Source of the DNA: Cyclina sinensis
Lineage: Eukaryota > Mollusca > Bivalvia > Venerida > Veneridae
Assembly: GCA_012932295.1 (NCBI GenBank)
Contig: JAAONU010000009.1
Coordinates: 3,640,843 to 3,704,842, forward strand
Direction: 5' to 3'
DNA length: 64,000 nt
A program made the translations under genes and the position numbers. Under the pieces are notes generated by a model. That model was not told the DNA's origin. It was given only the letters and a program-made list of their open reading frames with translations, and ran no database searches. Positions 16,060 to 64,000 of this stretch are shown one piece after another (the first letter of the stretch is position 1; each line of letters opens with the position of its first letter).

Positions 16060-17712
16060 TCTATAAAACTTGTTCAGTCCACTGATAAAAGCTGGCACAG
16101 CTGGGGTAGCCTTTATCTCGGTCGGTAATTCGTTCCAGAGTCATACAGTCCTTGGGAAGAATAAGTTCATGTGATTTTGTGTTTGTGATTGCGGGATGAG
16201 GTTTTTGTTGTTTCTTGTGTTTGTAAGGTGTTTGTGATCGACACTGACTTGTTTGTTTTTTATTTTGTGTAGCATGACCAGGCTGGCATAGTTTGCCTTT
16301 GTTCTAATGTTGACCATTTTAGTTCCTTAATCATGTTTGTTACACTGCTTGTATAGTGGTAATCATTATGAATGTACCTTGCAGCTGACCTCTGAACCAT
16401 TTCTATTCTGTGAGAGAGATATTTCTGCCATGGGTGCCATATGGTTCAGCAGTATATTTGAACTCTGGTCTTACATATGTTTTGTTTGCTCTTTCTTTGA
16501 GTTGTTTGTTTCATGTTTTGACATTCATCTGATGAACCTAAAGCTGTTTTTTGCTTTGTTTGTGATGTTGTTTATGTGGGATGACCAGTTCAGGTTACTA
16601 CTTATAGTAACTCCTAAGTATTTTGCATTTTCTGTGGTTTTCAGCACAGTGCTATGTAGGGTGTAGGGAAAGATGACCAGTTTCTTTTTTCTGTGTATTA
16701 TGAGTTCTTCACACTTGTCAGTGTTGAATTCCATTGACCATTCTTTTTCCCATATTTCAAGGTTGTGCAAACCATTTTGTAAGGTTTGTGCAGATGCTTG
16801 TGATTTGATTGTTAAAAAAACTATGGTGTCATCTGCAAATAGATGCATCCAGCTCCTGACACTTCCTGGTATGTAGGTCATTGATGTATGCAAGCTAGAA
16901 AGAGGCACGGACCTAAGACCGATCCCTGCCGGACACCAGAAAGCAAAGGGAGCCTGTTAGAGACCTTGTATTCCACTAATACTTGTTGTGATCTGTTTTT
17001 GAGAAAGTTTTGTATCCATGAACTGATGTGTGGATGAACTCCTATGTGTTTCAGCTTGTGTATGAGTTTCTGGTGGTCTACTTTTCGAAAGCTTTACTGA
17101 AGTCCATGACAATGACATCAGCTTGTTGACCTTCATCTAGGTTGTAAGCTATTTCTTGTGTGAAGCTGAAGTGCTGTGTCTGACAGCTTTGTTTTGACCT
17201 GAATCCATGTTGCTGGGGGCAAAGTATGTTGTGTTTGTCAAAGTAATCCATAATGTTTGAAACAATGATGTGTGCCATTAGTTTTGATGCTATACATGTG
17301 AGTGAAATTAGTTGCTATGTTTTGAATTTGACCCTTTTTTGAATGCTGGTGTGATGATGGCATGTTTCCAATCCTTAGGAACAATACCCATGTCAAGTGA
17401 CCCACAGGAATCTGACGTTTTATCCTAGAATTCACCGAGATGGGAATGAAAGCACTGCCACTCTAGCTGTTGCCAACAATTCTAGGATAAAACGTCGGAT
17501 TCCTGTGAGTGACCTTAGGAATATGATATTGAGGATGGGTGCTATCTCTGTGTGTAGCTCTTTGAGTAACCTAGGTTGGATCTCATCTGGACTTTGGGCT
17601 TTATGTGGGTTTATTCCTGTCAATAACTTATCAACTCCTAGAACTGAGATGGATATGGGACCCCTGGGTGGGTGATCAAGTGATGACATTGAGTTTTTAG
17701 CTATTTGTTCTT
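16060..17712 (-). mobile_element. degenerate non-LTR retrotransposon, reverse transcriptase part
   Basis: On the minus strand, broken frames give an ordered reverse transcriptase. From about 17689 it reads 'GINPHKAQSPDEIQPRLLKE' (the K-SPG/DEI block), then CPQQHGFRSKQSC and DVIVMDFSKAFEK near 17100-17220, the catalytic block LFADDT near 16830-16846, and AKYLGVTISSNLNWSSHI near 16560. This is the jockey/CR1-like order. The endonuclease part is missing (5' truncation). Frameshifts and an internal 105-bp insertion break it, so it is inactive. The region reaches into the presumed upstream flank of PON. Confidence 0.85.
17403..17507. mobile_element. 105-bp MITE with 30-bp TIRs inside the retrotransposon
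   Basis: The ends are inverted copies over 30 bases with one mismatch: cacaggaatc(t/c)gacgttt continuing atcctagaatt. The flanking heptamer agtgacc occurs at 17396-17402 and 17508-17514. Removing the insert and one heptamer makes the reverse-transcriptase frame continuous on the minus strand, with FLRSL joining directly to DMGIVPKDW. That supports a simple insertion. Confidence 0.9.
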
Positions 17713-21000: not shown

Positions 21001-24000
21001 TACAGACACAGGTATTATGCAAAGCTGTATTTTCATAGTGACAAAAAACATCTGTCATTAAAATTGCTAAAATCTGTAACAGAGGCTATTGTGACATTTC
21101 CATCAAATTTTTATGACAAAAACCTTGTTGTAAATCATTTTATTAAAATATGGCATATTACAGAACCTTTTCATTGTTGTTCATTAAGTTTCCAAATCAG
21201 CATATTTATTGCTAAACATTAGCACCTCATTGCTGTAAAATATATATGACTATTTTTATGTTTTTTATTGTTTAAGCAGACTGTATATGAGAGAGATAAT
21301 CAAGATTTATACTAGCACTTTCAGAACTTAAAATTGTGGGTGCAAAGGATACCCCCTGACCACTGTTGATTTGTTGTCATGGGGACACCCATTATTTAGA
21401 TTTAGATTATGATTTTCAGAGAAGATAACTCTCTTTGTTGTAAATCATGGCCCAGAAGAAGATAGAATAGAGAAGTTTGAGTTCATTGAGGACAAAATGA
21501 TGCTGGAACATAAAATCTCTTATATTGATGAAGCAGTACATTTGTAAGTATAAGAGGTTTATAGCTGTTATGAAATAGCAACTACTTATGCAGACATTAG
21601 CTGACCAAAGAGCTAAGATTAATATAACAAAACTATCCTTTTTTTGTAATATTCTGCAAAGATGATTCAGTATTTGCTAGTAATTCAGTGTTAGGGTTGG
21701 ACATCCGTGTTTTTCTATTAATCCATTCATCTACACCATGCAAACATAGAGTTATTGCAAGAAACTGGATCAGCATCAGTCTGTTATATGTACTCTCTTT
21801 ATCTGTACAAAATTTATAATGTGTATGTGAAGATATACCGATGGAAGCCTGGTTATTCAAGAGAAAGTTTTTATCTGTATTTTTCAGAGTCAATGATGTT
21901 GCTGCTGTGAGTGAGAACAGTTTCTACTTCACAAACTATGCTTATTCACGAAGTCACTTTGGTCATATTCTAGAGGCTATCATACTTCAGCTTCCCTGGG
22001 GGAACATTGTGTATTTTGATGGAGCAAACTATGTTGAAGTGACAGATGGACTTCTTTTACCAAATGGCATTCTACTGTCAACAGATAAACAGTAAGTGAT
22101 GCTGATACAGGGTCTATGTATTCTTTTACCAAATGGCATTCTACTGTCAACAGATAAACAGTAAGTGATGCTGACACAGGGTCTATGTATTCTTTTACCA
22201 AATGGCATTCTACTGTCAACAGATAAACAGTAAGTGACGTGGACACAGGGTCTATATGTACATTTACCAAATGGCATTCTACTGTCAACAGATAAATGGT
22301 AAGTGATGCTGACACAGGGTCTATGTATCCTTTTACCAAATGGCATTCTACTGTCAACAGATAAATGGTAAGTGATGCTGACACGGGGTCTATGTATCCT
22401 TTTACCAAATGGCATTCTACTGTCAACAGATAAATGGTAAGTGATGCTGACACAGGGTCTATGTATACTTTTACCAAATGGCATTCTACTGTCAACAGAT
22501 AAATGGTAGATGATGTGGACACAGGGTCTATGTATACTTTTACCAAATGGCATTCTACTGTCAACAGATAAACAGTAAATGATGTGGCCACAGGGTCTAT
22601 GCATACTTTTACCAAATGGCATTCTTCTGTAAACAGATAAACAGGAAGTGATGCTAACACAGGGCCTGTGTTTACTTTTACCAAATTGAATTCTACTGTC
22701 AACAGACAAACAGTAGGTGATGTGGACACAGGGTCTATGTATACTTTTACCAAATGGCATTCTACTGTCAACAGACAAACAGTAGGTAATGTGGACACAG
22801 GGTTATTGTATACTTTTACCAAATGGCATTGTAATGTCAACAGATAAATGGTAAGTGATGCTGACACGGGGTCTATGTATCCTTTTACCAAATGGCATTC
22901 TACTGTCAACAGATAAACAGTAAGTGATGCTGACTCAGGGCCTATTTATACTTTTACCAAATGGCATTCTACTTTCAACAGATAAACAGTAAGTGATGCT
23001 GACACAGGGGCTATGTATACTTTTACCAAATGGCATTAGACTGTCAGCAGACAAATGGTAGTGATTGGCCACAGGGTCTATGTATACTTTTACAAAGTGG
23101 CATTTTTCTGTCAACAGATAAACAGTAAGTGATGCTGACACAAGGTCTATGCATTCTTTTACCAAATGGCATTCTACTGTCAACAGATAAACGGTAAGTG
23201 ATGCTGACCCAGGGCCTATGTATACTTTCTCGAATGGCATTCTACTGACAACAGATAAACAGTAAGTGATGCTGACACGGGGTCTATGTATACTTTTACC
23301 AAATGGCATTCTACTGTCAACAGATAAACTGTAAGTGATTCTGACACAGGGTCTATGTATACTTTTAACAAATGGCATTCTACTGTCAACAGATAAATGG
23401 TTAGTGATGTGGCCACAATGTCTATGTAAACTTTTACCAAATGGCATTTTACTGTCAACAGATAAACAGTAGGTGATGCTGACATAGGGTATATGTACAT
23501 TTACCAAATGGCATTCTACTGTCAACAGATAAACAGTAAGTGACGTGGACACAGGGTCTGTGTATACTTTTACCAAATGGCATTCTACTGTCAACAGAAA
23601 AACAGTGGATGATGTGTACACAATTTCTATGTATACTTTTACCAAATGGCATTTACTGTCAACAGATAAACAGTAGGTGATGCTGACACAGGGTATATAT
23701 AAACTTTTACCAAATGGCATTTTACTGTCAACAAACAAACAGTAGGTGATGTGGAAACAGGGTCTGTGTATACTTTTACCAAATGTCATTTTACTGTCAA
23801 CAGATAAATGGTAGGTGATGCTGACACAGGGTATATGTATACTCATACCAAATGGCATTCTACTGTGAACAGACAAACAGTAGGTGATGTGGAAACGGTC
23901 TATGTATACTTTTCCCAAATGGCATTCTACTGTCAACAGATAAATGGTTAGTGATGTGGCCACAATGTCTATGTATACTTTTACCAAATGGCATTTTACT

Positions 24001-27000
24001 GTCAACAGATAAACAGTAGGTGATGCTGACATAGGGTATATGTACATTTACCAAATGGCATTCTACTGTCAACAGATAAACAGTAAGTGACGTGGACACA
24101 GGGTCTGTGTATACGTTTACCAATTGGCATTCTACTGTCAACAGACAAGCAGTAGGTGATGTGGACACAGGAACTATGTATACTTTTAAAAAATGGCATT
24201 TTACTGTCAACAGATAATTGGTAGGTGATGCTGACACAGGGTCCATGTATATTTTTACCAAATGGCATTCTACTGTCAACAGATAAACAGTAAGTGATGC
24301 TGACACAGTGTCTATGTATACTTTTACCAAATGGCAGTCTACTGTCAACAGATAAATGGTTAGTGATGTGGCCACAGGGTCTATGTATACTTTTACCAAG
24401 TGGCAGTATTCTGTCAACAGATAAACAGTAAGTGATGCTGAAACAGGGTATATGTATACTTTTACCAAATGGCATTCTACTTTCAACAGATAAATGGAAG
24501 GTGATGCTGACACAGGGTCTATGTATACTTTTACCAAATGGCATTCTACTGTCAACAGATAAACAGTAGGTGATGTGGACACAGGGTCTATGTATACTTT
24601 TACCTAATGGCATTCCACTGTCAACAGATAAATGGTAGGTGATGCTGACACAGGGTATATGTATACTTTTACCAAATGGCAGTCTACTGTCAACAGATAA
24701 ATGGTAGGTGATGTGGACACAGGGTCTATGTATACTTTTACCAAATGGCATTCTATTGTCAACAGATAAATGGTAGGTGATGCTTACACAGGGTATATGT
24801 ATACTTTTACCAAATGGCATTCTACTGTCAACAGATAAATGGTAGGTGATGTGGACACAGGGTTTATGTATACTTTTACCAAATGGCATTATACTTTCAA
24901 CAGACAAACAGTAGGTGATGTGGACACAGGGTTTATGTATACTTTTACCAAATGGCATTTACTGTCAACAGATAAACAGTAGTTGATGCTGACACAGGGT
25001 CTAGGTATACTTTTACCTAATGACATTCTTCTTTCAAGAGATAAACGGTTAGTGATATGGCCACAGGTCTATGTATACTTTTACCTAATGGCATTCTACT
25101 GTCAACAGATAAATTGTAGGTGATGTGGCCCCAGGGTCTGTGTATACTTTATACATTCAAACTGATATTGTAAATTGACATGACACTGAGCAAGTACTGA
25201 AAGTTTTGCATAAGAAAGAAGAAGGTGATAGTTCACAAAGATTAATACATGGTGTAAGACTCAACATAGATCAGTTTGACAGTTTAATAGAGAGACTTGT
25301 AAGTAGATCATTCCACTTTCTGATTAAATTTTTAAGCAAGAATAACCAATGACATTCCTATGTCACAAAATGCTCCACTTACGTATATATTGACTATATA
25401 AAGGACAGGTGCAGGTTGACTTCAGGAGGGACAGGTTGACTGTATGATGAATGACAGATGCCAGTTGGCTATATGAAGAACATATGCATATTGGCTGTAT
25501 GGATTACTTGTGCAAATTGACCATATGAAAGACATGTAAAGATTGATATTATGAAGGACATGTATAGATTGCCTATATGAATGGTTTGAATAGATTGACA
25601 ATATGAGGGACAGTGGCAGATTAACTGTATGAAGGTTGTGTACATGTTGACTGTTGAAGGACAGATATTGACCATATGAGGGAACTGTACACATTGACTG
25701 TATGAAGTAAAGGTATTGACCATATGAGGAAAATATACTAGTTGACTGTATGAAGTACAGGTATTGACCATATGAGGGAAATATACAGGTTGACTGTATG
25801 AAGTACAGGTATTGACCATATGAGGGAAATATGCAGGTTGACTGTATGAAGTACAGGTATTGACCATATGAGGGAAATATGCAGGTTGACTGTATGAAGT
25901 ACAGGTATTGACCACATGAGGGAAATATGCAGGTTGACTGTATGAAGTACAGGTATTGACCACATGAGGGAAATATACAGGTTGACTGTATGAAGTACAG
26001 GTATTGACCACATGAGAAAAATATACAGGTTGACTGTATGAAGTACAGGTATTGACCATATGAGGGAAATATACAAATTGACTGTATGAAGTACAGGTAT
26101 TGACCATATGAGGGAAATATGCAGGTTGACTGTATGAAGTACAGGTATTGACCATATGAGGGAAATATGCAGGTTGACTGTATGAAGTACAGGTATTGAC
26201 CACATGAGGGAAATATGCAGGTTGACTGTAAGAAGTACAGGTATTGACCATATGAGGGAAATATACAGGTTGACTGTATGAAGAACAGGTATTGACCATA
26301 TGAGGGAAATATACAGGTTGACTGTATGAAGTACAGGTATTGACCATATGAGGGAAATATACAGGTTGACTGTATGAAGAACAGGTATTGACCATATGAA
26401 AGAAATATACAGGTTGACTGTATGAAGTACAGGTATTGACCATATGAGGAAAATATACAGGTTGACTGTATGAAGAACTGGTATTGACCATATGAGGGAA
26501 ATATACAGGTTGACTGAATAATGAAGAACAGGTATTGACCACATGAGGGAAATATACAGGTTGACTGTATGAAGAACAGGTATTGACCATATGAGGGAAA
26601 TATACAGGTTGACTGTATGAAGTACAGGTATTGACCATATGAGGAAAATATACAGGTTGACTGTATGAAGAACTGGTATTGACCATATGAGGGAAATATA
26701 CAGGTTGACTGTATGAAGTACAGGTATTGACCATATGAGGAAAATATACTGGTTGACTGTATGAAGTACAGGTATTGACCATATGAAGGAAATATACACG
26801 TTGACTGTATGAAGTACAGGTATTGACCACATGAGGGAAATATACAGGTTGACTGTATGAAGTACTGGTATTGACCATATGAGGGAAATATACACGTTGA
26901 CTATATGAAGTACAGGTTGACTGTATGAAGTACAGGTATTGACCACATGAGGGAAATATACAGGTTGACTGAATGAAGAACAGGTATTGACCACATGAGG

Positions 27001-29936
27001 GAAATATACAGGTTGACTGTATGAAGTACAGATATTGACCATATGAGCGAAATATACAGGTTGACTGTATGAAGTACAGGTATTGACAACATGAGGGAAA
27101 TATACAGGTTGGCTGTATGAAGTACAGGTATTGACCATATGAGGGAAATATACAGGTTGACTGTATGAAGATCAGGTATTGACCATATGAGGGAAATATA
27201 CAGGTTGACTGTATCAAGTACAGGTATTGACCATATGAGGAAAATATACAGGTTGACTGTATGAAGAACAGGTATTGACCATATGAGGGAAATATACAGG
27301 TTGACTGTATGAAGTACAGGTATTGACCATATGAGGGAAATATACAGGTTGACTGTATGAAGTACAGGTATTGACCATATGAGGGAAATATACAGGTTGA
27401 CTGTATGAAGTAAAGGTATTGATCATATGAGGGAAATATACAGGTTGACTGTATGAAGCACATTTTGATTATATGAGGGAAATATACAGGTTGACTGTAT
27501 GAAGTACAGGTATTGACCATATGAGGGAAATATACAGGTTGACTGTATGAGTACAGGTATTGACCATATGAGGGAAATATACAGGTTGACTGTATGAGTA
27601 CAGGTATTGACCCTATGAGGGAAATATACAGGTTGACTGTATGAAGTACAGGTATTGACCATATGAGGGAAATATACTGGTTGACTGTATGAAGTACAGG
27701 TATTGACCATATGAGGGAAATATACAGGTTGACTGTATGAAGTACAGGTATTGACCATATGAGGGAAATATACAGGTTGACTGTATGAAGGACAGGCATT
27801 GACTATGTAAATGACATGTAGAGGTTGACTGTATGAAGTACAGGTATTGACCATGTGAAAGACATGTACAGGTTGACCGTATGAAGGACAGGTATTGACC
27901 ATGTGAAAGACATGTACAGGTTGACTGTATGAAGGATGTGTACAGATTGACCATATGAAGGACTTCTGTAAATTGACTATTTTGAAAGGACAGATGCAGA
28001 TTGATTATATTGAAGAACATGTGCAGATTGACTATTTTAGGAAAGATAAAGATTGACTATATTGAAGGACAGGTACAGATTGACTATATGAAGGACAGGT
28101 GCAGATCAACTATATTGAAGGACATTTACAGATTGACTGTATACAGGTGCAGACTGACAGTAAAAGGACACTTACAGATTGACAGGTTTAGATTAATTGT
28201 ATGGAGGACAGGTGCAGATCAACTATATTGAAGGACATTTACAGATTGACTGTATACAGGTGCAGACTGACAGTAAAAGGACACTTACAGATTGTCAGGT
28301 TTAGATTAATTATATGGAGGACAGGTGCAGATCAACTATATTGAAGGACATTTACAGATTGACTGTATACAGGTGCAGACTGACAGTAAAAGGACACTTA
28401 CAGATTGTCAGGTTTAGATTAATTATATGGAGGACAGGTGCAGATCAACTATATTAAAAGACATTTACAGATCAGCTGTATACAGGTGCAGACTGACAGT
28501 TAAAGGACACTTACAGAATGACAGGTTTAGATTGACTATATGATGGACAGACAGTTACTAGTTAACAATTATTAAATTTGAGGCACTTTAAATGCAATAT
28601 GATATGCAGCAAATATGAAATTGAGAGGTTTGAAACTTTCAGGTATATTCTAATGCCAATATTTTATATGATTAAAAACTGCATAAACAGTAGTTGAATT
28701 TAAATTATGTTGAAAAATTGATGCATCTTTTCATTGCCTTCAGTCACTGAGTCATTTTTGAAAATTCATATTCCATCTACATGTATTTTCTTCTTTACAG
28801 ATATGTTTATGTAGCAAATCCACTGTTTTCCTCATTGAGCATATTTGAAAGAGAGGAAGACAACTATTTGTCAATCATACAGGTAAATATTTCATACACG
28901 TGTCTTGTTTCACTAGGGCTTTAGGCATTTTCATGAATAAAACTTATTTCTTTGACTGTAAATAGAATACAACCTTTAGATCAATTAAGTTTTGTGCAAA
29001 TTAGTGAGAAGCATACCTAGAAGGACATGCAGTGTACTAATTTAAGCAGTTGATTTTAGACATATTTAACAAATATATTGTTTTTAAAGAGAATAAGTAT
29101 GGAATAATTAATGTATGTCATACTTTAAAAATGATGAAAAGAGGTGAAATACAAAGCCATGTCTGAATATTTATTCAAAAAGAAATATCTGTATTGTTAT
29201 ACTATTTTATCAGTTTAAAAACATTTGCAGGAATACCAAGTATATTCAGGTGCTGACAATCTTCTAATTGAACCGAAGACTGGAAATTTGCTCACCGGTG
29301 CACATCCAGTAATGCATCAGACAGGTGCTCATTTAAACTCACCAGATCTTCATCGTGCTTCATCTAAGGTAGGAAGCCTTGCTGATTTTTCTATACAGTT
29401 TTAACTGTAAACATATCCATTGTTAAATAAATAGTCAATAGACAGGTTATAGCCTATGATAGCCCATTTTCTAAATGTTCATCAGGATTTACAAAAAATG
29501 AAATAATTTTGTCATAGTATTGAGGATTTTGTTATGAAATTTCCTTTGTCTGTTACTTTAATAGGTAGCGTTATCTTACAGCGTGTATATTCTTTGCCTA
29601 TTATTGTATTGCTATTGACATTATTGAAGATATGATTGGAATGATAGATGTACTTGTAGTTACTGAATTCATTGCATTTTAGCTTGATATGGTTCTGACT
29701 GCTGTTGACATATCTCAGTCTTGATTAATGATTCTACACCTATTGTTAGATGTTTTTTCTAGGTGTTGATGATTCACTTGAAGAACACAAGTTATGCAGA
29801 TGGTATAACAGAGCTGTATTCGGATGATGGAAGTAACTTATCAGGGAGCAGTGTGGCATCTATCTATGACAACAAAATGCTTATTGGCTCAGTTGTGGAT
29901 AAACTGTTATATTGTGAAGTTAGAACTTTAGAGTGA
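18093..29936 (+). CDS. PON: paraoxonase/arylesterase (PON family lactonase)
   Basis: Coding exons are 18093-18160, 19753-19823, 20495-20550, 20822-21011, 21420-21543, 21888-22091, 28801-28882, 29231-29368 and 29763-29936. All are GT-AG and in phase, total 1107 nt (368 residues). The first exon (MMYLKIVGISLLLLILQHLA) is a hydrophobic signal/anchor; it leads into the family motif YNHTPGPC. By alignment from memory to PON1, the calcium ligands are kept (E51, D52, N172, D173, N229, D274, N275), as are the two histidines (H118 in FYPHGIS, H138 in VVNH) and the disulfide cysteines (C40, C362). Family members hydrolyse lactones and arylesters in a calcium-dependent six-bladed propeller, usually membrane-anchored or secreted. 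Intron 6 is 6.7 kb and almost wholly tandem repeats. An alternative start is the ATG at 18096. Confidence 0.95.
18968..18990. repeat. poly-G tract in PON intron 1
   Basis: A run of about 16 G, one T, then four more G. It precedes the 60-bp array. Such tracts can form G-quadruplexes and also miscount in sequencing. Confidence 0.8.
19041..19640. repeat. 60-bp minisatellite, ten units, PON intron 1
   Basis: The unit reads gagaatgtgtctgttcatat, then a T-rich 'ttcatttctttttatctgag', then catagtttaagtaatgaa. About ten copies end at 19640. Two units (near 19354 and 19594) carry the variant 'gttaatgttactgta' / 'gttaacgttattgta', hinting at a higher-order duplication of roughly 240 bp. The array ends 112 bases before PON exon 2. 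Confidence 0.93.
22054..25150. repeat. 69-bp array (~45 units) founded on the PON exon-6 3' end and splice donor
   Basis: The first unit begins inside PON exon 6 at cttttaccaaatggcattct (22054), runs through exon sequence for 38 bases and then across the GTAAGTG donor at 22092. The next copies start at 22123 and 22192, and so on to about 25150. Most copies keep 'gataaacagtaagtgatg' or 'gataaatggtaggtgatg', so dozens of potential donor sites sit downstream of the real one. Units differ at a few positions in patterned pairs (aacagt/aatggt; gctgac/gtggac), showing higher-order duplication. Long minus-strand open frames arise because 69 is divisible by three. Confidence 0.96.
25690..27800. repeat. 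48-bp minisatellite, about 43 units, PON intron 6
   Basis: The unit is gactgtatgaagtacaggta, ttgaccatatgagggaaata, tacaggtt. Copies are very similar (atatgag/acatgag, agtac/agaac variants). Diverged relatives with gactgtatgaagg / ttgactat extend to about 25400 on the left and 28090 on the right. The minus strand has open frames of up to 776 codons, an artefact of a stop-free 48-bp unit. Confidence 0.96.
28091..28548. repeat. 113-bp array, four units, PON intron 6
   Basis: Units share gacaggtgcagatcaactat, with the 'acaggtgcagatc' word at 28095, 28208, 28321 and 28434, exactly 113 bases apart. Each unit is built from diverged 'acagattgact' sub-repeats related to the neighbouring 48-bp family, so the longer unit seems to be a higher-order form of it. 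The array is followed by unique sequence up to exon 7 at 28801. Confidence 0.92.
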
Positions 29937-56063: not shown

Positions 56064-57307
56064 GTATGTGATATTTTTAAGTTAAATCAAATTATACCAG
56101 CCTTCAACACTGCATTATTTTTCCTTATTTTGCTCACCTGAGAACCATTGTTAAAAATATTTGAAATTTTTAAAGCCATAGCCTAAAAATTCAAAAGTAG
56201 ATCACTAAGTCAAGTTCAGGGTCATCCAGTGACAAAGGTTGGTCTAAACAGATTACTTGCTTGGGGTGTAAATCTAAAGGTTATAGCTTGAAATATGCAA
56301 AAGAAGTTTATTAGGTCATAGAAACATTCACTCAAGGTCAAAGGTCATTTCCAAGCACTAAATATATCTGACATTCAAATTTTATGTCAGTTTAGCTTTA
56401 AATCAACTTTTTTATCTGGACAATAAGATATTTAGCTGCTTTGTATATACAATAAAAAAGTTACATACAGGGCAGTGCCAATTTTTGCCTCTGGGGCACA
56501 ATTGGAACAGTCTTTACAGAGGATCATCTAATGGTGTTGCATGCCATAAATAAAAGCCCTATACCTTGAAGTGAAAGATAAGTAAATATTTTAAGATTTT
56601 ACAATATACATTTAGAGATAATAACTGACTGCAGGGTCAGGACTAATTTTGATTCCAGAGGCTCAATACAAACCAGGCACTCAACAATGCTAGATTTTAA
56701 AAATGAACACTCTAGGCCTTAAGGTTTCTAACAAGCAGATTTTTACAAGCCTGTGTAAAAGTAGTCCTAGGCTATGCAGTTCTAGACCCCCCCCCCACAG
56801 ACACACACACACACAAAAAATTTAAAGTTTTACTACATAACAACTGATCCCTATAGTGTATATTTAAAAGAAACTGGGTAATGTATCACCAAACAATGCT
56901 ACACAATATACTTCTGGGGTAAAAACTGTACTGGTGTGATGTATCATTTTTTTACATGCAAAAAAAGTTTTGACCGTTAATTAAGAATATCCTTAAATCT
57001 TATCATCTAACATTACAATCTCCAGGCCAAATTATCAGTTTAAATAAACTTAGCACCCACACTATTGCTGAATAAGTTATAACCCTTATAAACCAAGTAA
57101 AAGGTATTATTGCTGAATCTATTCATTTTATTCTATGGTACAAATATCTATTTTTGGTGAAATACCTACCTGCAAAAGTTGAAGACATACTAGTCATGTT
57201 TCTTGCCTGTATAAATGCCTGCAAAAATTTACATTTATGTCTATTGTTACAAATTTTAGTTCCTCTTAATTGACTATTAACTTTTTAACGTCTGTTATTG
57301 TTTACAG
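56064..57307 (+). other. last intron of the zinc-finger pseudogene
   Basis: AT-rich, with dispersed-repeat phrases ('aggtcaaaggtcatttcc', 'gtcaggactaattttgattc') around 56200-56660 and a C9/(CA)n microsatellite at 56789-56815. Confidence 0.5.
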
Positions 57308-57591
57308 GTAAAGGACTTGGACGAGAATAACAATACAGATTTTAAGTGCTCTATTTGTGACACAACTTTTGGAAGTTCCAGGTCACTGAAGCGACACATA
57401 TAAAAACACAGTGAGGACAGACTTGAGTGCCAATATTGTGGAAAAAAAATATGCTGAAGAGTATTTAATTGCTCACATAAGAACTCATAGAAATGAGGAA
57501 CACCTTTGTGATGATTGTGGTAAAATACACCTTACAGTCTAAATACAACTTAAAAAAGCATATCAATGAAAAACACAACCCTAACTTTAAG

Positions 57592-57764
<173 letters not shown>

Positions 57765-58256
57765 TATATAGTAAAGCTACCTTTTGAACGGAAGTAGGTT
57801 TGAACGGAAGTAGGCTGCGCATGCGCAAATGCATGACGGGAATATTGGTACGTCAGTACCGACATTGCGCATGCGTGTATTTCTTAACCGCCATTTTGAA
57901 TAGATGTATGGAAGAGGAAGGACGTGTTTTGTATTGTTCAGTTGTGATTGTTTAAAAAGAATGGATTATTATTAAAAGGTAAACGATTTTTTTATGTAAT
58001 TGAATACCTACAATATATTGTTTGTATTGTCATCCCTTAATTTGTAAAAAGAATTGATATAATTGCAAACAAAGTAAATACATATAAGCAAAATGGATTG
58101 AACCCTTGACCTTGCCTGCTATCCTGTATCGGAGAGCCAAAGCTTTTGTACTTATGGTTCGATTTTTACAGGTAATGTCCCGTGGTTTTGCAGCTTAAAT
58201 GCCTCTGGTTCGAACCTTTATGTGCTATCTTTGCAAGTGAAAGTATTCAATTCTAT
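57765..58256 (-). mobile_element. telomere-linked unit, copy A (492 bp)
   Basis: It begins tatatagtaaagctacct directly after TTAGGG and stops at 'attcaattctat', followed by gggttaggg. By eye it is identical to copies B and C over its length. It contains palindromic tgcgcatgcgca and two B-box-like words (ggttcgaacc near 58207; ggttcaatcc on the minus strand near 58098). Strand is given as minus because the fixed end would be a 3' end on that strand. No coding frame. Confidence 0.8.
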
Positions 58257-58327
58257 GGGTTAGGGTTAGGGTTAGGGTTAGAGTTAGGGTTAGGGTTAGG
58301 GTTAGGGTTTAGGGTTTAGGGTTAGGG

Positions 58328-58368
<41 letters not shown>

Positions 58369-58441
58369 GGTTAGGGTTAGGGTTAGGGTTAGGGTTAGGG
58401 TTAGGGTTTGGTTAGGGTTAGGGTTAGGGTTAGGGTTAGGG
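58257..58441 (+). repeat. telomeric (TTAGGG)n block 2
   Basis: About 30 units with a few TTTAGGG and one 'gagttaggg' variant, between copy A and copy B of the linked unit. Both strands are open for long stretches because six-base repeats lack stops in several frames; those frames are not genes. Confidence 0.95.
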
Positions 58442-59018
58442 TATATAGTAAAGCTACCTTTTGAACGGAAGTAGGTTTGAACGGAAGTAGGCTGCGCATG
58501 CGCAAATGCATGACGGGAATATTGGTACGTCAGTACCGACATTGCGCATGCGTGTATTTCTTAACCGCCATTTTGAATAGATGTATGGAAGAGGAAGGAC
58601 GTGTTTTGTATTGTTCAGTTGTGATTGTTTAAAAAGAATGGATTATTATTAAAAGGTAAACGATTTTTTTATGTAATTGAATACCTACAATATATTGTTT
58701 GTATTGTCATCCCTTAATTTGTAAAAAGAATTGATATAATTGCAAACAAAGTAAATACATATAAGCAAAATGGATTGAACCCTTGACCTTGCCTGCTATC
58801 CTGTATCGGAGAGCCAAAGCTTTTGTACTTATGGTTCGATTTTTACAGGTAATGTCCCGTGGTTTTGCAGCTTAAATGCCTCTGGTTCGAACCTTTATGT
58901 GCTATCTTTGCAAGTGAAAGTATTCAATTCTATTCTTGTCTATATGAATATAGAAGCGGCCATTTTGAAAGTCATTGCGTATGTTTCTAAAAATAAAATA
59001 CTCGTTGTAAAAGGCGGG
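58442..59018 (-). mobile_element. telomere-linked unit, copy B (577 bp)
   Basis: Same first base and sequence as copy A, but continuing 85 bases further (ttcttgtctatatgaatata ... gtaaaaggcggg) before switching to ttaggg at 59019. GGG at the junction is shared with the longer copy C, so the exact switch point is ambiguous by three bases. Confidence 0.8.
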
Positions 59019-59059
<41 letters not shown>

Positions 59060-59138
59060 AGTTTTTGGGTTAGGGTTAGGGTTAGGGTTAGGGTTAGGGT
59101 TTAGAGGGTTAGGGTTAGGGTTAGGGTTAGGAATAGGG
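59019..59138 (+). repeat. telomeric (TTAGGG)n block 3
   Basis: About 18 units with 'tttttgggttaggg' and 'agagggttaggg' interruptions, fading at 'aggaataggggg'. Confidence 0.93.
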
Positions 59139-59404
59139 GGTTTTGCGAATGTTCATTTCGTTTTGAACAATTGCTCCGCCCACTTGTCAATCATTATTCT
59201 GGTTAGATTCGGTTAGATGTTTGAATTTTTTCATTTGTATATAGACATTCAATGAGTACAGTATTGTGAAATTATTTGGATAAAATGTTATAGTGTTTTC
59301 GGATATTGTATTATATATTAAAGTAAGTTAATTTGATAAGAAGTGTTTTTTGCAATGAGAATATTTCTAATTATTTTGATTTTAAAAACATTTTGTGTCT
59401 GTTC
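59139..59404. other. unique sequence after telomeric block 3
   Basis: 266 bases of AT-rich non-repetitive sequence between the telomeric block and the triplet repeats. It may hold the promoter or a first exon of the 61251 gene, but I cannot define one. Confidence 0.25.
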
Positions 59405-59985
59405 ATAGTTGCTGATGAAGAGGAGTATGATAATTAATGAAATAAATTTTTTGGCTGTTGATGATTGTGATTATAGTTGCTGTTGTTGTGATGATGATGA
59501 TAATGATCAGGAGGAGGATTATGATAATATCATGATGATGATGATTGTTGCTGTTGATGATGATGATTGTTGTTGTCGTTGTATTAGTTTTAAATTTTGA
59601 TGATGACAATGATGATAATAATTATTATAATGAGTAGATGATGATGATGGAAATTATTGTTAATGCTGTTGTTGATGTTGATGCTGATGATGAGGAGTAT
59701 GATAATATCATGATGTCGATGAACGTTTATGTTGTTGTTGATAATGATGATTTTTGTTGTAATCGTTGTATAAGTTTTAAATGCTGATGATGACAATGGT
59801 GATGATGATTATTATAATGAGTAGATGATGATGATGGTAATTATTGTTAATGCTGTTGTTGTTGTCGATGCTGATCATGATGATGATGCTGATGATGATA
59901 GTGATGAATATAGTTGTTCTTGTTTTGGCTGTTGATGGTGATGATGATTAAGATGATGCTGCTGCTGATGATATATATCTTTATT
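59405..59985. repeat. GAT/GTT triplet-rich low-complexity region
   Basis: Interspersed gatgatgat and gttgttgtt runs. A ~185-bp segment is duplicated: 'aggagtatgataatatcatg' occurs near 59695, and 'ggaggattatgataatatca' near 59513, each followed by gatgat...gttgttg and then 'gtaatcgttgta' / 'gtcgttgtattag' and 'aagttttaaat' / 'agttttaaatt'. The open frames are compositional. Confidence 0.85.
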
Positions 59986-60009
59986 GGCTCAATAAGAGAA
60001 CCTTTACTG

Positions 60010-61195
60010 TAATAAAAATATTTTGGGTAACCTGAGTTACCATGTTTCTTAAAATAACTTTTGTCGGCAAGTCTTGGTAACATTGGTTAACCTGAGTAAC
60101 CAACTCCGGTTAACCTGGGTAACCATGTTACTAAAAATAACTTTTGTCGGCAATTCATGGTAACATTGGTTAACCTGGGTAACCAACTTCGGTTAACATG
60201 GGTAACCATGTTACTAAAAATAACTTTTGTCGGCAGTTCTTGGAAGCTTTGGTCAACCGGGTTCGGTAACCAACTTTGGTAATCTGTTGGCAACATAGGT
60301 CAAACGGGGTAACCAACTGAGGTAAACCTTTGTAACGGTATTATTGGTCAACTGGGGTAACCAGCTCTGGTTACCTGTAGGTAACCTTGGTCAACCAGGG
60401 TAATCAAGTTTGGTTATCTCTTGGCAACATAGTTTAAACGGGGTAACCAACTCAGATTTAACCTGGGTAACGGTACTATTGGTCAACTGGGGTTACCAGC
60501 TGCGGTAACCTGTTGGTAACATTGCTCAACCAGGGTAACTTACTTTGGTTATCTCTTGGCAACATAGGTCTTACGGAGTAACCGACTCAGATTAACCAGG
60601 GTTTCGGTACTATTAGTCAACTGGGGTTACCAGCTCCGGTAACCTGTTGGTTACATTGGTCAACCAGGGTAACTTACTTTGGTTATCTCTTGGCAACATA
60701 GGTTTTACGGAGTAATTAACTCAGATTCACCAGGGTAACGGTACTATTGGTCAACTGGGGTTACAAGCTCCGGTAACCTGTTGGTAACATTGGTCAACCG
60801 GGGTAACCAACTTTGGTAACCTGTTGCCCACATAGGTCAAACGGAGTAGCCAACTTTGGTTATCTGTTGGCAACATAGCTCAACGTGGTAACTCACTCAG
60901 GTTAACCTGGGAAACGGTACTATTGGTCAACCGGGATAACCAGCTCTGGTTACTTGTTGGTAACCTTGGTCAACCAGGGCAGCCAACTTTTGTTATCTGT
61001 TGGCAACATAGGTCAAACGTGGTAACTAACTCAGGTTAACCTGGGTAATGTTACAACTGGTCAACTGGGGTAACTAGCTCTGGTTACCTGTTGGTAACAT
61101 TAGTCAAACGGGGTAATGAACTCACTGAGATAAGTTTTTTCGGCAAGTCTTGTTAACATTAGTCGGCGTCGGGTAACCAACCTAGGGTAATGTTA
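60010..61195. repeat. GGTNACC satellite with ~135-bp higher-order unit
   Basis: Dense ggtaacc/ggttacc/ggttaacc words. A marker, cggtactattggtcaactgg, recurs at about 60335, 60471, 60605, 60740, 60915 and (diverged) 61049: spacings of 134-136, except one of 175 where an extra ~40-bp subunit is present. Subunits of roughly 40 bases alternate 'ttggcaacataggtcaaacg' and 'ctgttggtaacattggtcaa'. Confidence 0.88.
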
Positions 61196-61250
61196 ATGTT
61201 AGTTTTAAATTTGCTTGTTCTGATACATTTTATTTTTTATTCAGGATAAG

Positions 61251-62228
61251 ATGGTCGAAAGTATCCAGATGGAGTCAATGGCAGATGAGAATGAACACCT
61301 TTTATTGACGGGTATGGAGAACGCACTATCATTTAAACGGGTTTTTCAAAAACACAAAAGTATGACAGAATTTTTATGTCAGCATGAGTACATATCCATA
61401 AGAAGTACATCAATTTCATCATTTGAATATGAGAACGACTTAGACATTTCTACAGATATTGATGGTGTAACTATTGAGTGGAAAAATCTGGCCGGCACAT
61501 CGCAATCCTTTCATCACTTGTTTCTCGGTTCGAGGTTAAAAAATGTCTATACATTGTTGAAAAAACATGAAGATTTAACGAAGTACAATGCTGTCAGCTT
61601 GAAGACATTTAAAGAATGTGTAGGTGTACCAATTTTAAATGATGGTGGATGGGAATACGTACTATGCCTTTTGCCAGAATATAAATGTAACACGCCGTAT
61701 TACAAGGAAGTCATAAATTTGACCACGCTGAACTGGATTACTGAAATTAGAGTTAAGCTTCAAGAAATGTTTCGAGAGGCAATACCTGGTCGTGTAATCA
61801 AGGAAACAATAGATAAAAACAATGTGTTTGATTTACGGCAGATTTTCATATTACCAGGTGATAGAGACACAGTCCTTCAAATGTTTCAATCCTGTGTCGA
61901 TACTGTTGTTGTTCCTCAGGGTTTTAGGAAGTTCCTTTTCAGCTATAGATTTGGTGAAAAAGACCGTGGGCATGTAAATCTACCAATTACTGACAATGAC
62001 GCGGTGAATATGATATGTGTACATGTTGGAGTAAACATACAATTACAGGACGAAAGCGAAAGCTTGTATTGGTCTAGGTCTGGGATTGAGCCATTAATAG
62101 GACAACGCGGTACATTATCAACAGCATGCGGACTTACCGAGTGTGCTAATTTTCAGAGTAATTTTGTTTTTGAAATTACTGTCCATTTATATTGTTATAT
62201 AAGTTGTACTGTTTTATTACGTATTTGA
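61251..62228 (+). CDS. unassigned 325-codon protein between telomeric blocks
   Basis: One intact frame from ATG 61251 to TGA. It is preceded by a good acceptor (ttttttattcag, exon from 61245; GAT AAG before the ATG is also open), so it is probably the last exon and may begin in an earlier exon. The sequence is non-repetitive and protein-like: MVESIQMESMADENEHLLLT, then a body with DGVTIEWKNLAGTSQSFHHL, GGWEYVLCLLPEYKCNTPYY and YWSRSGIEPLIGQRGTLSTA, ending in a hydrophobic tail ITVHLYCYISCTVLLRI. No signal peptide at this start and no domain I recognise. AATAAA at 62356 would end the transcript. It could be a lineage-specific gene or an element-encoded protein. Confidence 0.6.
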   Translation: MVESIQMESMADENEHLLLTGMENALSFKRVFQKHKSMTEFLCQHEYISIRSTSISSFEYENDLDISTDIDGVTIEWKNLAGTSQSFHHLFLGSRLKNVYTLLKKHEDLTKYNAVSLKTFKECVGVPILNDGGWEYVLCLLPEYKCNTPYYKEVINLTTLNWITEIRVKLQEMFREAIPGRVIKETIDKNNVFDLRQIFILPGDRDTVLQMFQSCVDTVVVPQGFRKFLFSYRFGEKDRGHVNLPITDNDAVNMICVHVGVNIQLQDESESLYWSRSGIEPLIGQRGTLSTACGLTECANFQSNFVFEITVHLYCYISCTVLLRI

Positions 62229-62355
62229 TTTGTGAAAAGATTTCACGATCGCTATTTCAGAGTTAAAAAGGAATAATAGCTGATTATAAACTTTATGTCT
62301 GTTAAGGTTGTGTAATTTCATTGTCATGACATTATTTTGAAATATTCTGCTTTAA

Positions 62356-62361
62356 ATAAAG
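62356..62361 (+). terminator. polyadenylation signal for the 61251 frame
   Basis: AATAAA in 'tttaaataaagttgg', 128 bases after the stop codon. Confidence 0.5.
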
Positions 62362-62539
62362 TTGGTAAAATTGTATTAAAGCAATTAGACTTGTTTTATC
62401 TGGGGTTTGAGTTAGCACTTTTATAGGGTGAAACAGTCTGTATAGGCTAAAGGCCTATGTATAAGTTAAAGACCTCTGTAGTGTGTAAAGGCCTTTGTTT
62501 AGAGTGAAGGCCCCTTTATAGTTTCGGTTACCGATGATG

Positions 62540-63040
62540 ATCGTTAAAGCGTCTCAAAAAAGAGTCCACTTTGTATCATACATCTACCAGCGGTTACCTG
62601 GGTTAGTTTGGGTCACCGCGATTACCTAGAGTAAGTTCGGGTAACCGCGGGCAGATGGTAAGATTGCAAGTTAGATTGATACAGTTTTGGTAAGTTTCGG
62701 TTACTGATGATGAAAATAAGGTTGTGGCTGTTTGTGTTGTTGCTCTTGATAATGATGCAGTCGCTTTAACAATTATAATCATACTTATCATCATCCAAAA
62801 CCACAGTACTATTATCAGCAACTGCATCATCATCAACAACAACCACACAAACAGCAACAGCCACATATACATCATCGGTAACCGAAAATAACCAAAACTG
62901 TATCAATCTAACTCTTATCCATACCAACTGCCCGCGGTAGCCCAAACTAACCTTGGGTAACCACGGTTACCAAAACTAACCCGGGTAGCCGCGGGTAGAT
63001 GAATGATACAAAGTGGACTGTTTTTTGAGATGCTTAAACG
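62540..63040. repeat. imperfect ~500-bp palindrome
   Basis: The left arm 62540-62766 matches the inverse of 62818-63040. Paired words include 'agtccactttgtatca' (62574) with 'tgatacaaagtggact' (63006); 'ttagattgatacagttttgg' with 'ccaaaactgtatcaatctaa'; and 'gtggctgtttgtgttgttgc' with its near-inverse around 62845. A third copy of the right arm lies in direct orientation at about 63050-63190. Arms contain GGTNACC words and GAT/GTT triplets from the neighbouring satellites. Confidence 0.85.
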
Positions 63041-63200
63041 GTTATAATCTTACTTATCATCAAAAACAAGAACAACATCGTCAGCAGCATCAGCAATTGC
63101 ATCATTATCATCAACAACAGCACAAACAGCCACAACCTTATTAACATCATGGGTATTCGAAACTAACCAAAACTGTATCAATTTAACTTGTAACCTTGTT

Positions 63201-63211
63201 TAGGGTTAGGG

Positions 63212-63246
<35 letters not shown>

Positions 63247-63262
63247 AGGGTTAGGGTTAGGG

Positions 63263-63303
<41 letters not shown>

Positions 63304-63357
63304 GGTTAGGGTTAGTTTTTGGGTTAGGGTTAGGGTTAGGGTTAGGGTTAGTTAGGG

Positions 63358-63394
<37 letters not shown>
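63201..63394 (+). repeat. telomeric (TTAGGG)n block 4
   Basis: About 31 units with TTTAGGG, 'gagggttaggg' and 'gttagttttt' variants, same orientation as the other three blocks, again followed directly by the linked unit. Confidence 0.95.
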
Positions 63395-63395
<1 letters not shown>

Positions 63396-64000
63396 ATATA
63401 GTAAAGCTACCTTTTGAACGGAAGTAGGTTTGAACGGAAGTAGGCTGCGCATGCGCAAATGCATGACGGGAATATTGGTACGTCAGTACCGACATTGCGC
63501 ATGCGTGTATTTCTTAACCGCCATTTTGAATAGATGTATGGAAGAGGAAGGACGTGTTTTGTATTGTTCAGTTGTGATTGTTTAAAAAGAATGGATTATT
63601 ATTAAAAGGTAAACGATTTTTTTATGTAATTGAATACCTACAATATATTGTTTGTATTGTCATCCCTTAATTTGTAAAAAGAATTGATATAATTGCAAAC
63701 AAAGTAAATACATATAAGCAAAATGGATTGAACCCTTGACCTTGCCTGCTATCCTGTATCGGAGAGCCAAAGCTTTTGTACTTATGGTTCGATTTTTACA
63801 GGTAATGTCCCGTGGTTTTGCAGCTTAAATGCCTCTGGTTCGAACCTTTATGTGCTATCTTTGCAAGTGAAAGTATTCAATTCTATTCTTGTCTATATGA
63901 ATATAGAAGCGGCCATTTTGAAAGTCATTGCGTATGTTTCTAAAAATAAAATACTCGTTGTAAAAGGCGGGAATATTGCGCGCCAAATAAAGTTGGCGGG
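63395..64000 (-). mobile_element. telomere-linked unit, copy C (at least 606 bp, runs off the window)
   Basis: Identical in start and, by eye, in sequence to copies A and B. It continues past the end of copy B into gaatattgcgcgccaaataa agttggcggg without meeting TTAGGG in the window, so it is the longest copy. The full element and any coding region would lie to the right. Confidence 0.8.

What the first reader, a model, noticed from the sequence alone, without database searches (positions are those of the whole stretch)
57765..64000. Telomere-linked unit with one fixed end and variable truncation at the other: candidate telomere-primed retroelement
Three copies (57765, 58442, 63395) start at exactly the same base after TTAGGG. 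Copy A stops at 492 bp and copy B at 577 bp, each followed at once by new TTAGGG; copy C runs on past 606 bp. Read on the minus strand this is a constant 3' end (…GGTAGCTTTACTATA followed by CCCTAA) and variable 5' truncation, as in target-primed reverse transcription. If RNA ending in CCCUAA annealed to a free TTAGGG 3' end, copying from it, followed by telomerase capping, would yield this structure. Endonuclease-lacking Penelope-like elements (Athena, Coprina) are known to use telomeres this way. The copies look identical, so the events are recent, or were later duplicated. I know of no such description for this sequence.
Basis: partly seen in the sequence, partly recalled or inferred. Interest (0 to 1): 0.88.

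Follow-up and report, generated by a model that had tools for sequence, protein, structure and literature searches.

The report
Telomere-anchored gene fragments at chromosome ends
In what is likely a clam genome, 106 sequenced copies from five subtelomeric DNA families begin at a family-specific base directly after telomeric TTAGGG, and those whose far end could be read stop at more than 40 different points and run into new TTAGGG repeats; they were likely copied onto free chromosome ends and then likely sealed by telomerase, and the longest of them carry a gene for an unknown protein that is also present in other bivalves.

Summary
Copies A, B and C are identical where they overlap and start at the same base after TTAGGG. 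The genome holds 70 exact copies of the 17-nt start, against 1 of its reversed control. In the loci I fetched, 108 of 108 copies (six families, found by their starts) follow TTAGG(G); five families show 48 distinct right ends into TTAGGG arrays. No left-truncated or reversed copy was seen there; one diverged copy has a degenerate left flank.

The retroelement reading is not supported as written. The longest copies (6.2 kb on C1; relatives on C2 and C6) show that the fixed end is the 5' side of a gene on the TTAGGG strand, opposite to the proposed RNA. The gene is a single-exon ~950-aa ORF of unknown family, also in four named bivalves. I found no reverse transcriptase or hammerhead in the copies examined. 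One family (F4) has the opposite gene orientation.

Best reading: telomere 3' ends likely pair with the telomeric edge of a resident element, copying runs outward and aborts, and telomerase likely caps it; the template is more likely DNA than RNA. It resembles TALT and terminons but is filed under neither. Untested: RNA, raw reads, other individuals.

The parts
57587..57764 (+). TTAGGG array 1, directly left of copy A
57765..58256 (+). F1 copy A (492 nt): fixed left end TTAGGG|TATATAGTAAAGC, truncated at right and followed by GGGTTAGGG
58257..58441 (+). TTAGGG array 2
58442..59015 (+). F1 copy B (574 nt, 577 with the shared GGG): same left end, different right end
59016..59131 (+). TTAGGG array 3
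59132..63202 (+). F3 copy (4071 nt): second fixed-start family (TTAGG|AATAGGGGGTTTTGCG), running into array 4 at right; a 98.8% identical copy on contig C128 has another right end
61251..62228 (+). About the N-terminal third of the ~950-aa ORF family, on the TTAGGG strand; the ORF of the C128 copy also stops shortly after the same place
63200..63394 (+). TTAGGG array 4 (its first TTA is shared with the F3 copy)
63395..64000 (+). F1 copy C, runs to the window end; 3360 N follow in the assembly
57817..57898 (+). Promoter-like motifs in copy A (two GCGCATG sites and CCGCCATTTTG; the names NRF1 and YY1 are recalled); such motifs are also in F2, not in F3, F4 or F6
   Evidence: function inferred

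Best explanation
These are partial copies of subtelomeric elements, several of them gene-bearing, that were likely added to chromosome ends by copying that started at the element's telomeric edge, stopped at varying distances, and was likely capped by telomerase. Shown: a fixed left base per family directly after a TTAGGG array, many right ends running into TTAGGG with short overlaps to the repeat, one orientation within each family, and an outward-reading ~950-aa ORF in the longest F2 copies. Inferred: a 3' TTAGGG end pairs with the short telomeric stretch bordering a resident element (chromosomal or extrachromosomal), a polymerase extends it outward, the strand comes off, and telomerase extends it. 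The template is more likely DNA than RNA, because most families would need antisense RNA and one family (F4) is read from its other end. Also inferred: composite units (398, 700, 819 and 1202 nt plus array) were then multiplied in tandem and exchanged between chromosomes by recombination.
For: 70 exact F1 starts on 12 contigs against 1 reversed control. 108 of 108 copies found by their starts follow TTAGG(G); 49 distinct right ends in F1-F4 and F6, 48 of them into real arrays (a few differ by one base and may be one event). No left-truncated or reversed copy among 198 BLAST hits (80% identity and 150 nt or more) in fetched loci; the 20 flagged hits are cut by the locus end or a gap, lie in copies whose array lacks the strict pattern, or have variant starts. 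Overlap with the repeat: mean 1.42 nt against 0.58, P 0.0005, for 31 of 36 ends then known. Five of 18 F1 ends lie within 70 nt of the start, P 0.002 if uniform. Left arrays differ between copies: 50 distinct F1/F2 contexts, 10 with a variant within two repeats of the junction. F2 continues for 6.2 kb on C1 and C2 and at least 5.0 kb on C6, with the ORF on the TTAGGG strand. An array of about 560 nt at the very start of C2 borders an F1-F2 pair.
Against: The overlap at the left junction is short: the first array variant lies 4.9 repeats away against 3.1 expected, so only about two template repeats seem to be copied. That fits a short-tailed RNA or single strand at least as well as long-homology recombination. 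No donor, no polymorphic insertion and no empty site was seen. The excess of very short copies could also come from healing near an internal telomeric seed. One search's raw mean overlap was -1.5 and its scripted P 1.0: 10 of 49 ends scored negative, which I put down to variant arrays or the lack of a longer copy to compare. One diverged F2 copy (L045) has a degenerate telomeric left flank and a changed start.
Confidence: 0.5

Rival explanations
1. Telomere-primed reverse transcription: an RNA ending in CCCUAA pairs with the TTAGGG overhang and is copied by a reverse transcriptase (own, Penelope-like or telomerase), with 5' truncation and telomerase capping.
For: Fixed end, variable truncation with several very short copies, short overlap at the left junction, telomeric capping. 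F4 has the expected orientation: ORF, 620-nt tail, then CCCTAA.
Against: In F1-F3 and F6 the needed RNA is antisense to the gene. No reverse transcriptase in the element ORFs scanned, and no second ORF of 120 aa or more on the TTAGGG strand of the 6.2-kb C1 copy. No Rfam hammerhead; a core-motif scan of all 54 loci hits only one place, in the distal satellite of two F2 copies, not at a fixed end.
Confidence: 0.2
2. Whole elements move between chromosome ends by ordinary recombination within TTAGGG arrays; later terminal breakage trims them and telomerase heals the break. No aborted copying is needed.
For: Tandem composite units and the same right end on C2 and C6 (12 copies at about 700 nt) show recombination. 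Overlap at right ends fits healing.
Against: Tandem duplicates on C14 keep their array variant, while other copies with identical bodies have other variants close to the junction, so many left junctions look independently made.
Confidence: 0.2
3. Endonuclease-directed insertion into existing TTAGGG arrays, as recalled for TRAS/SART elements.
For: The copies with both ends readable lie between telomeric arrays, and right ends resume mostly at GGGTTAGGG.
Against: No endonuclease or reverse transcriptase domain in the ORFs scanned and no poly(A) at the fixed end; gene orientation differs between families.
Confidence: 0.05
4. Assembly artefact of repetitive chromosome ends.
For: Several clusters touch runs of N: 100 N at C1 and C15, 3360 N at C18.
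Against: Copies on 12 contigs, dozens of distinct junctions, and F2 and F3 following the same rule as F1.
Confidence: 0.05

Closest known systems
TALT (template for ALT) in C. elegans, PMC4595603 (passages read)
   Same: A block of genomic DNA (for TALT1 a promoter and first exon) flanked by telomere-like repeats in the same orientation, found at many chromosome ends and in tandem.
   Different: The passages describe one defined block per strain, spreading in telomerase-deleted worms. Here one end is fixed, the other takes dozens of positions, and several families take part in a genome not known to lack telomerase.
Terminons / Athena, endonuclease-deficient Penelope-like elements, PMC6431247 and PMC3846280 (passages read)
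   Same: Chromosome-end confinement, reverse-complement telomeric repeat at the fixed end, truncated other end followed by telomeric repeats, tandem arrays.
   Different: No reverse transcriptase or hammerhead found in the copies examined; in most families the fixed end is the gene's 5' side.
Yeast Y' elements and subtelomeric amplification (listing only; otherwise recalled)
   Same: Subtelomeric gene-bearing repeats separated by telomeric tracts.
   Different: I recall no fixed-start, variably truncated families there.

Membership tests
Telomere-associated Penelope-like elements (Athena, Coprina, Terminons) | Reverse transcriptase ORF in long copies | tested here: not met
   Pfam on four ~950-aa ORFs and 14 homologues: no RVT; no second ORF of 120 aa or more on the TTAGGG strand of the C1 F2 copy. 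Only fetched copies were examined.
Telomere-associated Penelope-like elements (Athena, Coprina, Terminons) | Hammerhead ribozyme next to the telomeric 3' end | tested here: not met
   Rfam on part of the window and 18 loci; core-motif scan of window and loci hits only places away from fixed ends
Telomere-associated Penelope-like elements (Athena, Coprina, Terminons) | Fixed end is the 3' end of the coding strand | tested here: not met
   21 of 27 oriented ORF hits read the other way; 6 (F4-type) fit (27 of the 42 hits, assigned by hand)
Telomere-associated Penelope-like elements (Athena, Coprina, Terminons) | Truncated end followed by telomeric repeats | tested here: met
   48 of 49 distinct ends in F1-F4 and F6
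TALT | Non-telomeric block flanked by telomeric repeats in the same orientation, on several chromosomes | tested here: met
TALT | One defined block multiplied | tested here: not met
   Several families; left border fixed, right border variable
TALT | Amplification when telomerase is lost | not testable with these tools
   A telomerase gene search did not complete
TRAS/SART non-LTR elements | APE-type endonuclease plus reverse transcriptase and poly(A) tail (features recalled) | tested here: not met
   No such domain in the ORFs scanned; no poly(A) at the fixed end

The most novel reading that the evidence does not exclude
Bivalve chromosome ends host a new class of telomere-bound mobile elements: each abuts TTAGGG at one fixed end, encodes a ~950-aa enzyme of unknown fold with invariant acidic residues and a Myb-like C-terminus, and moves by that protein's own copying from free telomere 3' ends, leaving capped fragments, some of which drive transcription into telomeric arrays.
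Probability: 0.25. Interest if true: 0.92.

Novelty: new variant of a known kind. Interest (0 to 1): 0.7.

Why it matters
It gives a genome-scale record of repeated, end-anchored copying next to telomeric repeats in an animal with TTAGGG telomeres, with dozens of junctions on which RNA-primed and DNA-primed models can be told apart. It also exposes an uncharacterised ~950-aa protein family, with intact single-exon ORFs here and relatives in other bivalves, found mostly on the contigs that carry these clusters; it could be expressed and tested. If it proves to drive the copying, it would be a route to telomere-bound mobility unlike Penelope-like elements.

Tried and rejected
RNA families: no hammerhead; sub-threshold miRNA and other chance-like matches only, none in seven long loci. 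A hammerhead-core regular expression gave two hits far away in the window and one place in the distal satellite of two F2 copies. Pfam, NCBIfam, PHROGs and PDB sequence searches of the ~950-aa ORF: no match above a cut-off, only scattered weak ones. Viral contigs: none. tRNA/SINE origin of F1: a tRNA-like stretch is visible by eye on the minus strand near 58100-58150, but ARAGORN finds no tRNA; not pursued. dN/dS between the C19 ORF and a truncated C13 copy: 0.47 over 348 codons with only 19 differences, too few to lean on; other pairs are saturated. Structure prediction failed once and was then switched off, so the fold is unknown. Rows dropped before counts: 5 of the 36 ends (no longer copy to compare), one F6 'end' that is a single repeat, and 15 of 42 ORF hits. 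Of these 15, ten are further pieces of ORFs, two (C7, C9) have no known array direction, C10:79449 and C13:42979854 read with TTAGGG, and C8:1958554 reads against the F1 copy 5 kb away and was not assigned to a type.
Full report
Check of the observation. Copies A (57765), B (58442) and C (63395) start at the same base after TTAGGG and are identical over the shared 492 and 577 nt (which counts from the second base). A and B stop at different points and run straight into TTAGGG. C reaches the window end, and the assembly then reads N for 3360 bases, so its right end is unknown. The arrays left of the three copies share only their last 18 to 21 nt.

Genome-wide. The window lies at C18:3640843-3704842 of a 902.9-Mb assembly in 154 contigs. 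The unit (606 nt) gave 42 matches, all starting at query base 1 or 3; 40 of 96 candidates were scored. The 17-nt start occurs exactly 70 times on 12 contigs, against 1 for the reversed control. In the loci fetched, which were chosen for the unit or the ORF and so are not a random sample, I found six families with a fixed start after TTAGG(G). They are F1 (the unit, 68 copies), F2 (22; 86% identical to F1 over 610 aligned nt), F3 (9, including the window's 59132-63202 insert), F4 (3), F5 (2) and F6 (4). Copies were found by their starts, and 108 of 108 follow TTAGG(G). F5 looks different: its two ends resemble an inverted repeat, and the plain sentence leaves it out. A few further copies have starts shortened by 2 nt after TTAGGG (C15, C6), and one diverged F2 copy in L045 has a degenerate telomeric flank and a changed start.

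Right ends. F1-F4 and F6 show 49 distinct right ends, told apart by their last 14 nt, 48 of them into real arrays (one F6 case is a single repeat). Some that differ by one base may be one event. Lengths range from 15-21 nt to 6.2 kb. Overlap between the unit and the telomere repeat averages 1.42 nt for 31 of 36 ends then known, against 0.58 for random joins (P 0.0005). Counting every end, 19 of 48 have 2 nt or more against 14.7% expected. The scripted mean was -1.5 with P 1.0, because 10 of 49 ends scored negative; I put these down to variant arrays or the lack of a longer copy. This pattern is what telomerase priming on free 3' ends would leave; that step is inferred.

Left ends. In fetched loci, 178 BLAST hits of family bodies (80% identity and 150 nt or more) fell inside copies with a proper start; the 20 others were cut by the locus end or an assembly gap, lay in copies whose right array lacked the strict pattern, or had variant starts. 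None was reversed. Among 50 distinct F1/F2 left contexts the first array variant lies 4.9 repeats away on average against 3.1 expected, and 10 have one within two repeats. These contexts are not fully independent. I read this as roughly two repeats contributed by the template. Tandem copies on C14 keep the same array variant, so I take different variants to mean different events.

What the units belong to. On C1 an F2 copy starting at TTAGGG continues through degenerate CCCTAA-like repeats into a 939-aa ORF on the same strand, and ends at TTAGGG after 6.2 kb. Copies on C2 (6.2 kb compared) and C6 (5.0 kb) are 99.0% and 98.8% identical to it, with broken ORFs. No F1 copy that I read reaches an ORF; its link to the gene rests on its similarity to F2. 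F3 carries about the first third of a related ORF, also on the TTAGGG strand; its C128 relative is 98.8% identical over 3989 nt with another right end. F6 precedes such an ORF on C13. F4 carries the ORF in the opposite direction, with a 620-nt tail ending at CCCTAA. Of 42 ORF hits I oriented 27 by hand: 21 read with TTAGGG and 6, all F4-type, against it (the 15 left out are listed under Tried and rejected).

The ORF. Four intact copies of 938-962 codons between stops have no match above cut-offs in Pfam, NCBIfam, PHROGs or PDB sequences. The Mactra protein bears number 000001 of its genome, with a longest contig of 66.6 Mb, which suggests, but does not show, a chromosome-end position. Across 33 long members, D71, D73, E398, E478, E482 and D669 are invariant, and the C-terminus looks Myb/SANT-like by eye. 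Function is unknown.

Mechanism. I favour copying from the telomeric edge of a resident element by a TTAGGG 3' end, likely DNA-templated, with abortive ends capped by telomerase. The families' mixed gene orientation and the lack of a reverse transcriptase in what I scanned argue against a standard retroelement; the short overlap at the left junction and the very short copies remain points in its favour. Recombination has multiplied composite units as well, as the tandem arrays on C2, C5, C6, C14 and C15 show.

Place in the literature. TALT blocks in C. elegans are flanked by telomere-like repeats, and TALT1 contains a promoter and first exon (PMC4595603, passages). Terminons are chromosome-end Penelope-like elements truncated by telomeric repeats, with a hammerhead beside the telomeric tail (PMC6431247, PMC3846280, passages). 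Searches of open-licence papers listed none whose title or abstract start describes this structure in a bivalve; only listings were seen beyond the three papers named. Most subscription papers are not held.

Limits. Many clusters lie beside runs of N or at interior scaffold positions, which may be scaffolding errors; at the start of C2 an F1-F2 pair does border an array of about 560 nt that reaches the contig start. No reads, RNA or second individual could be examined, and several whole-genome searches did not complete.

Noticed in passing
L038 1508-6050 (C1): F5, a 4.5-kb segment whose start (CTAAGGTTATTTTCCTCCCGTGGCCC) and end (GGGCCACGGGGGGAAAAAAACCCTAA) look like inverted repeats, sits between TTAGGG arrays; possibly a DNA-transposon-like or satellite block.
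   Followed up: partly
L001 2110-2796 (F1) and L047 1750-2997 (F2): F1 and F2 bodies continue into long degenerate CCCTAA-like repeats in inverted orientation to the flanking arrays; their origin is unexplained.
   Followed up: no
57300-57590: Sequence left of array 1 reads like a C2H2 zinc finger with a stop (FKCSICDTTFGSSRSLKRHI*), so the first telomere addition here may have healed a break in or near a gene.
   Followed up: no
60025-61123 and 62533-63049: GGTAACC-rich minisatellite (43, 83 and 134-nt periods) inside the F3 copy, and an inverted repeat with 233-nt arms.
   Followed up: no
22054-27934: Long minisatellites of 69-nt (45 copies) and 48-nt units.
   Followed up: no
16525-16956: Reverse-transcriptase fragment (RVT_1, E 1.2e-7) on the minus strand, far from the telomeric cluster.
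   Followed up: no
58095-58150: Minus strand resembles tRNA D and T arms by eye; ARAGORN finds no tRNA in the window.
   Followed up: partly
L038 6631-6730 (C1), L008 1192-1291 (C15), L031 844-4203 (C18): Clusters abut runs of N (100, 100 and 3360), so their interior chromosome positions may be scaffolding errors.
   Followed up: partly
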